64,000 nucleotides of DNA from positions 1 through 64,000 of the forward strand of contig JAHLWS010000077.1 in the NCBI GenBank assembly GCA_019057795.1. The letters run 5' to 3'. This stretch comes from Promethearchaeota archaeon (GTDB taxonomy: Archaea > Asgardarchaeota > Lokiarchaeia > Sigyniarchaeales > SOKP01). The notes beneath the pieces are model-generated. The model saw only the letters and a list, made by a program, of their open reading frames with translations, made no database searches and was not told the DNA's origin. How positions within the stretch are numbered: position 1 is the first letter of the stretch; each line of letters begins with the position of its first letter. The translations under genes and the position numbers were made by a program. This document shows, one piece after another, positions 57,005 through 58,247 of this stretch.

Positions 57005-57062
57005 AAATTTTATAATCCAGTAAAATATTAAAAGAAATTCAGAAAATAAAGGGTGACAACCT

Positions 57063-58247
57063 ATAGAAACTTTTCATATCTCTGAAACACTCGTTAAGAT
57101 AATTAAAAATCAAGCGTTATTAAGCGAAAATGAGATATATGGGTGGTTAATCGGGTATCTAGAAGATAAAACTCCAAAAGTTTTAGCTATTATTGAATGT
57201 AAACGATTTGAGCAACAAACACTTATAAGTGCAATTCCACACGCCCAAGAATTTCAGGAAATAAGTTCTGTGATGCCGCAAGGAATAGGTCCTATTGGGA
57301 TATATCATTCACACCCGTTTTCTAGCGAAATTTTTCACAGTCATACTGACGATTCTACTTTGTTAAGTCTAAGTAATCAGTTTTCTAATTGCGTTTCGAT
57401 CGTAACAAATGGAAAAGATATTAATTATTACCAAATGGGAAAGGAGAGTAAAACTATAGAAATTAACGTTAAATATATCGAACCAGAGATTCCAAAGTTT
57501 TTATTAATTTTGTTTGATGAAACTCTTTTAATCAAGATAAATAAAAGTATTTTAAATAATGTAGAGAATGTCAGCAACTTAAAAATAAGAATTTTGAACG
57601 AAGTAAATAATTTTTTAGAGAATATCTGGAGCGATTTAGAGTTATTTGCGAACTATTCGAAGATATCTGAGAACGATGTTGTTACTAAATATTTAGTAAA
57701 TAATTTAAAAGCGCGTCCAATTCAACTAAAGATTTCAGCAGAAACGAAGAATAAAGGTAAAATCCAAATAGTAATAGACAACGATAATGAATCAAATATT
57801 ATAACTGATTCTATTGATAACGATTACAAGTATTATAGATTAGATTTAAATGCCAAAGTTCCAATTTATGTCAGCAACGATAATAAGATTTTCAAAGATA
57901 TAAATAACGCAATTAAGACAGAATTATTGAGCAATAATATTCTCCAAAAGATTTATAATTGTGTTATCGATTACGATAAAAAAATTATTATAACTCCCGA
58001 TGATTTTTATCTTAATTTCTTCGGATTTTATATAAGAGTTTTGTACTTCAATAAAAACGAATTAAACGAATTCGAATTTTCCCATAGAACTTTTGATTTG
58101 ATATATAAATTTATATCTCTATTTAATTCTCTTCTAAATAAAGAATTATCAAATAAATTCAAAAGCCAAATTAAAACGTTTTTTAATGATATAAAAAAAA
58201 TCTCTAAAAAATTTAGCTGGCATTATGAAATTAATAAAAACTATTAG
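57063..58247 (+). CDS. JAMM/MPN+ metalloprotease domain protein (deubiquitinase-like); N-terminus lies upstream of the ORF-track start
   Basis: In-frame upstream IETFHISETLVKIIKNQALLSENEIYGWLIGYLEDKTPKVLAIIECKRFEQ, then GIYHSHPFSSEIFHSHTDDS (HxH-x8-SxxD). Confidence 0.85.
   Translation: METFHISETLVKIIKNQALLSENEIYGWLIGYLEDKTPKVLAIIECKRFEQQTLISAIPHAQEFQEISSVMPQGIGPIGIYHSHPFSSEIFHSHTDDSTLLSLSNQFSNCVSIVTNGKDINYYQMGKESKTIEINVKYIEPEIPKFLLILFDETLLIKINKSILNNVENVSNLKIRILNEVNNFLENIWSDLELFANYSKISENDVVTKYLVNNLKARPIQLKISAETKNKGKIQIVIDNDNESNIITDSIDNDYKYYRLDLNAKVPIYVSNDNKIFKDINNAIKTELLSNNILQKIYNCVIDYDKKIIITPDDFYLNFFGFYIRVLYFNKNELNEFEFSHRTFDLIYKFISLFNSLLNKELSNKFKSQIKTFFNDIKKISKKFSWHYEINKNY

What the first reader, a model, noticed from the sequence alone, without database searches (positions are those of the whole stretch)
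57054..58247. JAMM protease whose catalytic Glu lies upstream of any annotatable start
The ORF track starts at 57270, but the same frame upstream (57063-57269) encodes SENEIYGWLIG, which supplies the expected catalytic Glu. It runs straight into the HxH...SxxD motif. No ATG/GTG/TTG exists in frame after the TGA at 57054; a GTG at 57053 would fit with a 1-nt shift. A JAMM in a UFM1-type cluster is notable because eukaryotic deufmylation uses cysteine proteases (UFSPs).
Basis: partly seen in the sequence, partly recalled or inferred. Interest (0 to 1): 0.82.

Follow-up and report, generated by a model that had tools for sequence, protein, structure and literature searches.

The report
Deubiquitinase-like gene with AUA start
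A zinc protease gene in an archaeal UFM1-like protein-tagging cluster starts at AUA instead of AUG, so gene finders cut off its catalytic residue; related archaea start the same gene, and other genes, at AUA, AUU or AUC, which suggests a poorly known kind of translation start in this lineage.

Summary
In detail: the frame is open from 57057 to 58244, carries the catalytic Glu (57132-57134), and has no ATG/GTG/TTG before 57270. It is not a frame error. In ten Lokiarchaeal loci (window, own paralogue, eight other genomes) the start aligns exactly 23 codons before the Glu: ATA, ATC or ATT in eight, ATG in two. The first two letters never vary; the third is nearly random. Three other genes in the same family show ATG-to-ATH swaps behind GGTGA-N6. 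So AUH is very probably a real, recurrent start class here; one 2026 paper infers a single ATT start in another Asgard gene. The protein is a catalytically complete JAMM protease (E24, H82, H84, S93, D96 invariant in 64 sequences). Its neighbours are a UBA5-like E1, a UFC1-like E2 and a UFM1-fold modifier ending in Val-Gly. I infer that it removes this modifier and, in relatives with tailed or E2-fused modifiers, also matures it. Closest solved relative: CsRpn11. Weak evidence links it to the inactive MPN proteins of eukaryotic UFM1 removal. No experiment was possible.

The parts
57052..57056 (+). Shine-Dalgarno core GGTGA (AGGGTGA at 57050-57056); holds the GTG at 57053 and the in-frame TGA at 57054
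   Evidence: Sequence; GGTGA/GGTGG 5-6 nt before the start in all 8 ATH loci; background rate at a coding codon 0.08%
57063..57065 (+). Proposed AUA start codon of the JAMM gene, residue 1
   Evidence: Aligned codon in 10 loci: ATA 2, ATC 4, ATT 2, ATG 2
57063..58247 (+). JAMM/MPN+ metalloprotease, 394 aa; MPN core about residues 3-125, C-terminal alpha/beta domain about 130-394
   Evidence: Pfam Prok-JAB; AlphaFold2 pLDDT 88.5; best PDB relative CsRpn11
57132..57134 (+). Codon of catalytic Glu24
   Evidence: Invariant in 64 sequences; aligns with the Glu of CsRpn11, whose active-site Glu is Glu24
57306..57350 (+). JAMM motif His82-x-His84 ... Ser93-x-x-Asp96
   Evidence: All four residues invariant in 64 sequences
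57270..58247 (+). Truncated ORF from the first NTG; lacks the Glu and the first strands and helix of the MPN fold; probably not the real gene product
54536..55363 (+). UBA5-like E1
   Evidence: Profile against PDB: UBA5 252 bits, next MoeB 135 bits
59452..59718 (+). UFM1-like modifier, 88 aa, ending in Val-Gly with no tail
   Evidence: AlphaFold2 model pLDDT 85.9; the 8 best PDB fold matches are UFM1; VG invariant in 17 sequences
59715..60257 (+). UFC1-like E2 (TTG start overlapping the modifier's stop), probable catalytic Cys137 in ICHEH
   Evidence: All 16 alignment members match Pfam UFC1; the best PDB matches are all UFC1; C137 invariant
53447..54529 (+). Conserved 360-aa partner of unknown function, C-terminal zinc ribbon
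   Evidence: Directly upstream of E1 in every family locus, 43-82% identity
55538..57004 (+). Leucine-rich-repeat gene between E1 and JAMM, not seen there in the orthologous loci

Best explanation
The gene is an intact JAMM isopeptidase translated from AUA at 57063. The ribosome is placed by the GGUGA Shine-Dalgarno sequence 6 nt upstream, and the initiator tRNA (CAU) most likely pairs with A and U and tolerates a mismatch at the third base. The protein then has Glu24, His82, His84, Ser93 and Asp96 in register with CsRpn11 and should be a zinc protease. In this cluster the UFM1-like modifier already ends in Val-Gly, so the enzyme's likely job is deconjugation: cutting the bond after Val-Gly to remove the modifier from targets. 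In relatives whose modifier has a short tail or is fused to the E2, it should also do maturation. A weak start could keep the removing enzyme scarce relative to E1, E2 and modifier. Shown by sequence: the start position, its ATN pattern, the intact active site, the UFM1-type partners. Inferred: use of AUA by the ribosome, zinc catalysis, the substrate, and any regulatory value of the weak start.
For: Start codon: 10 loci, all ATN exactly 23 codons before the Glu; substitution rate 0, 0, 0.8 at codon positions 1, 2, 3. GGTGA/GGTGG 5-6 nt upstream in all 8 ATH loci, against 0.08% of coding codons. Chance of Ile codons at that column in 8 of 8 loci about 1e-7, ignoring shared ancestry. Public protein records that reach this position read Met 25, Ile 26, other 4; 44 of 120 lack the Glu altogether. 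Other genes behave alike. eIF2B-like isomerase: ATA 6, ATT 10, ATG 7, TTG 2 in 25 loci. Acyl-CoA synthetase: ATA 12, ATG 1. Amidohydrolase: mostly ATA, with ATC, GTA, TTA and one ATG at the aligned position. Enzyme: five active-site residues invariant in 64 sequences; N-terminal strand and helix modelled with pLDDT about 90; CsRpn11 top by sequence and fold. Partners. Precedent: inferred ATT start with RBS in Kari AtubA (PMC13394414).
Against: No protein, ribosome-profiling or activity data. GTG inside the SD is an in-frame alternative start in L024 and some other relatives, though not in the window. Two JAMM orthologues have plain ATG. The one-genome enrichment test for ATH behind GGTGA is moderate (G000 p 0.0013, G035 p 0.05, G076 not significant). 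AUU starts are extremely rare elsewhere (1 of 61,358 ancestral AUG starts switched to AUU; PMC5622118). The modifier-protease pairing rests on gene neighbourhood.
Confidence: 0.8

Rival explanations
1. Sequencing or assembly error: the gene really starts at GTG 57053 or an ATG, and one or more bases are wrong near 57054-57065.
For: No NTG start in frame; the GTG at 57053 lies close by.
Against: Independent assemblies of different species, plus the genome's own second copy, carry ATA/ATC/ATT at the same codon with an SD at the same distance. The same pattern occurs in unrelated genes.
Confidence: 0.03
2. The protein is made only from GTG 57270 or ATG 57273, as a truncated MPN pseudoenzyme without the Glu.
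For: This is what gene finders report.
Against: The upstream codons are under protein-level constraint. The Glu is invariant in 64 relatives. The MPN fold would lose its first strands and helix.
Confidence: 0.05
3. The upstream part is joined to an upstream protein by frameshift or stop readthrough, so ATA is an internal Ile codon.
For: In several orthologues the E1 gene ends just before and in the same frame.
Against: Different stops (TGA, TAA, TGA-TAA) and different relative frames occur in different genomes. In the window an LRR gene separates E1 from the JAMM gene. ATG occupies the same codon in two orthologues.
Confidence: 0.03
4. Non-AUG starts are tolerated only by termination-reinitiation: ribosomes finishing E1 restart at the nearby AUH.
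For: In seven of the ten JAMM loci the E1 stop lies 6-16 nt before the ATH start (coordinates). Coupling at very short distances is known in archaea (PMC10666635).
Against: In the window the upstream stop is 58 nt away, with a different gene. The acyl-CoA synthetase start is about 220 nt from its upstream gene (coordinates). Coupling is almost completely lost by about 20 nt (PMC10666635).
Confidence: 0.1
5. The JAMM acts on another modifier (ubiquitin or SAMP type) and sits in the cluster by chance.
For: Best sequence match is CsRpn11, a ubiquitin-type enzyme.
Against: E1, JAMM, modifier and E2 lie close together in nearly every locus examined, including other orders, sometimes rearranged. Modifier tails and E2 fusions offer natural cleavage sites after Val-Gly.
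Confidence: 0.12

Closest known systems
CsRpn11, JAMM deubiquitinase of the Caldiarchaeum ubiquitin operon (PDB 6fjv, 6fno; PMC6043591)
   Same: MPN+ fold; active site E24, H82, H84, S93, D96 here against Glu24, His83, His85, Ser93, Asp96; sits with modifier, E1 and E2; best match by sequence and fold
   Different: Partners here are UFM1-type; modifier ends Val-Gly, not Gly-Gly; large C-terminal domain of about 260 residues not aligned with CsRpn11; AUA start
Eukaryotic UFM1 system (UBA5, UFC1, UFM1)
   Same: E1 best matches UBA5, E2's credible matches are all UFC1, modifier has the UFM1 fold and Val-Gly end
   Different: Eukaryotes remove UFM1 with cysteine proteases UFSP1/UFSP2, not a JAMM; the modifier is not called by Pfam Ufm1 at its cut-off
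ODR4 and the MPN domain of nematode UfSP (PDB 5xda)
   Same: MPN fold linked to UFM1 removal; UfSP aligns over 385 columns of the JAMM model; the ODR4 profile's only hits in 15 Asgard genomes are two of these JAMM loci
   Different: ODR4 is a pseudoenzyme, and nematode UfSP cuts with a cysteine protease domain; the matches are weak (E 0.07 and 0.2; TM 0.40)
Rare ATT start inferred for Kari AtubA, an Asgard tubulin (PMC13394414)
   Different: One gene inferred by those authors; here a recurrent pattern across genes and species
Human UFSP1 (PMC9638016)
   Same: UFM1 protease whose catalytic residue was missed because translation starts at a non-AUG codon upstream
   Different: CUG start, cysteine protease, unrelated fold; the parallel is probably coincidence

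Membership tests
JAMM/MPN+ metalloprotease | Glu plus HxH and SxxD metal/catalytic residues | tested here: met
   E24, H82, H84, S93, D96 invariant in 64 sequences
JAMM/MPN+ metalloprotease | MPN fold | tested here: met
   AlphaFold2 pLDDT 88.5; top PDB folds CsRpn11, BRCC36, Pf JAMM1, Rpn11, AMSH-type
JAMM/MPN+ metalloprotease | Zinc-dependent isopeptidase activity | not testable with these tools
   needs assay
UFM1-type conjugation system | UBA5-type E1 with catalytic Cys and zinc cysteines | tested here: met
   UBA5 252 bits against MoeB 135; C190 and C171/C174/C243/C246 invariant
UFM1-type conjugation system | UFC1-type E2 | tested here: met
   16 of 16 alignment members match Pfam UFC1, best E 2e-10; the window member alone is just below the curated cut-off (23 against 25 bits)
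UFM1-type conjugation system | UFM1 fold with single-Gly Val-Gly terminus | tested here: met
   UFM1 is the top fold; V87 G88 invariant
UFM1-type conjugation system | Modifier recognised by the UFM1 sequence family | tested here: not met
   Pfam Ufm1 matches only 3 of 17 members, best E 0.037; no credible PDB sequence match
UFM1-type conjugation system | UFL1 E3 co-occurring | tested here: inconclusive
   UFL1-like gene at C77:106118, but such genes are in 55 of 66 family genomes and the cluster in 9
UFSP cysteine protease | Papain-like cysteine protease catalytic domain | tested here: not met
   No UfSP family among the Pfam hits listed; the protein is MPN
Non-AUG (table 11) start codon | Start position conserved with canonical starts in relatives, and an SD | tested here: met
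   ATN at one codon in 10 loci; GGTGA/GGTGG at 5-6 nt in the 8 ATH loci
Non-AUG (table 11) start codon | Initiation observed at the codon | not testable with these tools
   needs N-terminal proteomics or ribosome profiling

The most novel reading that the evidence does not exclude
In Lokiarchaeia AUN (and some GUA/UUA) behind GGUGA-N6 is a general, physiological class of start codons with a relaxed third base, hiding the N-termini of perhaps 1-2% of genes. The JAMM found this way is the active removal enzyme of an archaeal UFM1 system and represents the ancestor of the inactive MPN fold kept in ODR4 and nematode UfSP.
Probability: 0.35. Interest if true: 0.9.

Novelty: new variant of a known kind. 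Interest (0 to 1): 0.74.

Why it matters
If right, standard gene callers cut the N-termini of a class of Asgard genes, here removing the catalytic residue and making an active enzyme look dead. It would mean that start-codon choice in close archaeal relatives of eukaryotes is looser at the third base than textbooks allow. It also gives a directly testable archaeal UFM1-type pathway with an intact metalloprotease, where a 2023 survey found UFM1, UFC1 and UFSP2 only in eukaryotes (PMC10183829), and a candidate origin for the MPN pseudoenzymes of eukaryotic UFM1 removal.

Tried and rejected
GTG 57053 with a shift: rejected, it is the SD core. Readthrough or frameshift fusion with E1: rejected, stops and frames vary between genomes. 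A special initiator tRNA with another anticodon: an initiator-arm pattern search found one site, with the ordinary CAT; other initiator forms were not excluded. A generic SD scan showed that SDs are sparse, in line with reports for Lokiarchaea (PMC7531240, PMC12993045). UFL1 co-occurrence with the cluster was not informative. Sequence search of the modifier against PDB found nothing credible; only the fold search resolved it. A direct profile comparison with ODR4 was not possible for lack of ODR4 sequences here. Literature searches on UFM1 in Asgard or Lokiarchaea found no report of an archaeal UFM1/UFC1/JAMM cluster, but only an open-licence library was searched.

Full report
1. The observation. 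The frame 57057-58244 is open and encodes a JAMM protease whose Glu lies before any NTG codon. The public form of the protein starts at MPQGIG, without the Glu. The window is contig 77 of a 4.95-Mb genome whose named relatives are Lokiarchaeota MAGs.

2. The start codon. ATA 57063 lies 6 nt behind GGTGA (57052-57056). A second copy in the same genome (C49, 52% identity) and orthologues in eight other genomes were aligned on the catalytic Glu. In all ten loci the codon 23 residues before the Glu is ATN: ATA (window, own copy), ATC (four), ATT (two), ATG (two). Its substitution rate is 0, 0 and 0.8 at positions 1, 2 and 3, while codons 2-69 show the usual protein-coding pattern. All eight ATH loci carry GGTGA or GGTGG 5-6 nt upstream; at coding codons in general this occurs at 0.08%. 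In the protein database, records long enough to show this position read Met 25 times and Ile 26 times, four others; 21 start after it and 44 of 120 lack the Glu. Some of those are contig-edge fragments, and some of the Ile records have an annotated start at a codon just upstream that could be a GTG inside the SD. Counted from ATA, the active site is E24, H82, H84, S93, D96; CsRpn11 has Glu24, His83, His85, Ser93, Asp96.

3. Not only this gene. In sampled DNA, ORFs with coding signal upstream of the first NTG repeatedly show GTGA-N6-ATH. Three were followed across the family (codons tabulated, where the eIF2B-like start codon is the last triplet of each printed upstream string). The eIF2B/ribose-1,5-bisphosphate isomerase-like gene: ATA 6, ATT 10, ATG 7, TTG 2 in 25 loci; ten of the sixteen ATH loci have no in-frame NTG upstream, six have a GTG inside the SD that could serve instead. 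Acyl-CoA synthetase: ATA 12, ATG 1. Amidohydrolase: mainly ATA, also ATC, GTA, TTA and one ATG; some relatives start elsewhere. By eye about nine of 545 sampled coding ORFs in G000 look like this; that is an estimate, not a count. Elsewhere AUG-to-AUU switches are near absent (PMC5622118). One 2026 paper infers an ATT start in an Asgard tubulin gene (PMC13394414). aIF1 favours discrimination against non-canonical starts in Sulfolobus (PMC6237735); whether Lokiarchaeal aIF1 is laxer was not examined.

4. The enzyme and its cluster. Five active-site residues are invariant in 64 sequences. The model has high confidence including the N-terminal strand and helix; CsRpn11 leads by sequence and fold. 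Neighbours: UBA5-like E1, UFC1-like E2, and a modifier with UFM1 fold and invariant Val-Gly end. UFM1 is described as unusual in ending Val-Gly (PMC12355090). Pfam Ufm1 does not recognise the modifier at its cut-off. In relatives the modifier has a tail after VG (GN in L034, ARK in L035, L in L057) or is fused in frame to the E2 (L024, L029, L031, L053). So a processing protease is probably needed there, while in the window only deconjugation remains.

5. Link to eukaryotic UFM1 removal (a lead, not a result). Eukaryotes use cysteine UFSPs; ODR4 is an MPN pseudoenzyme and nematode UfSP carries an MPN domain (PMC9638016, PMC10952357). The JAMM model aligns with nematode UfSP over 385 columns (E 1.3e-5, TM 0.40). 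The ODR4 profile weakly hits two members (best E 0.006), and its only two hits in 15 genomes fall on JAMM loci (E 0.07 and 0.2, compare). This fits common descent but is weak, and any MPN protein would share part of this similarity.

6. Verdict. AUA start of an intact JAMM: strongly supported by comparison, untested by experiment. UFM1-type substrate: inferred from neighbourhood and cleavage-site anatomy. General AUH class: supported in four genes; frequency only estimated. The idea that the weak start limits protease dose is speculation.

Noticed in passing
L024:8775-9584, L029:10195-11004, L031:8584-9399, L053:485-1303(-): Modifier and E2 fused in one frame (...VG followed directly by the E2), a natural precursor for the protease.
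   Followed up: partly
L034:9930-10208, L035:6769-7044(-), L057:2563-2826: Modifiers with short tails after Val-Gly (GN, ARK, L), like pro-UFM1.
   Followed up: partly
window 53447-54529: Unnamed 360-aa protein with C-terminal zinc ribbon, upstream of E1 in all family loci and near the cluster in some other families; no credible Pfam or NCBIfam match.
   Followed up: partly
G000:C77:106118-106750 (L220): UFL1-like E3 domain (59 bits) on the same contig, within an 802-codon open frame.
   Followed up: partly
window 55538-57004, 58287-59333, 60761-61762, 63679-63972(-): A shared C-terminal module of about 90 aa (N.EIYA.YFSSTKSVAF.QQANIEEID.LM..Y..WE) ends several otherwise different proteins; faint PCI similarity in one.
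   Followed up: no
L186, L188, L190, L191 (amidohydrolase loci): GTA and TTA at the start position behind GGTGA-N6, suggesting that third-base laxity extends beyond AUN.
   Followed up: partly
window 60328-61762: TPR gene seems split by a frame change near 61000 (two overlapping ORFs in different frames sharing TPR repeats).
   Followed up: no
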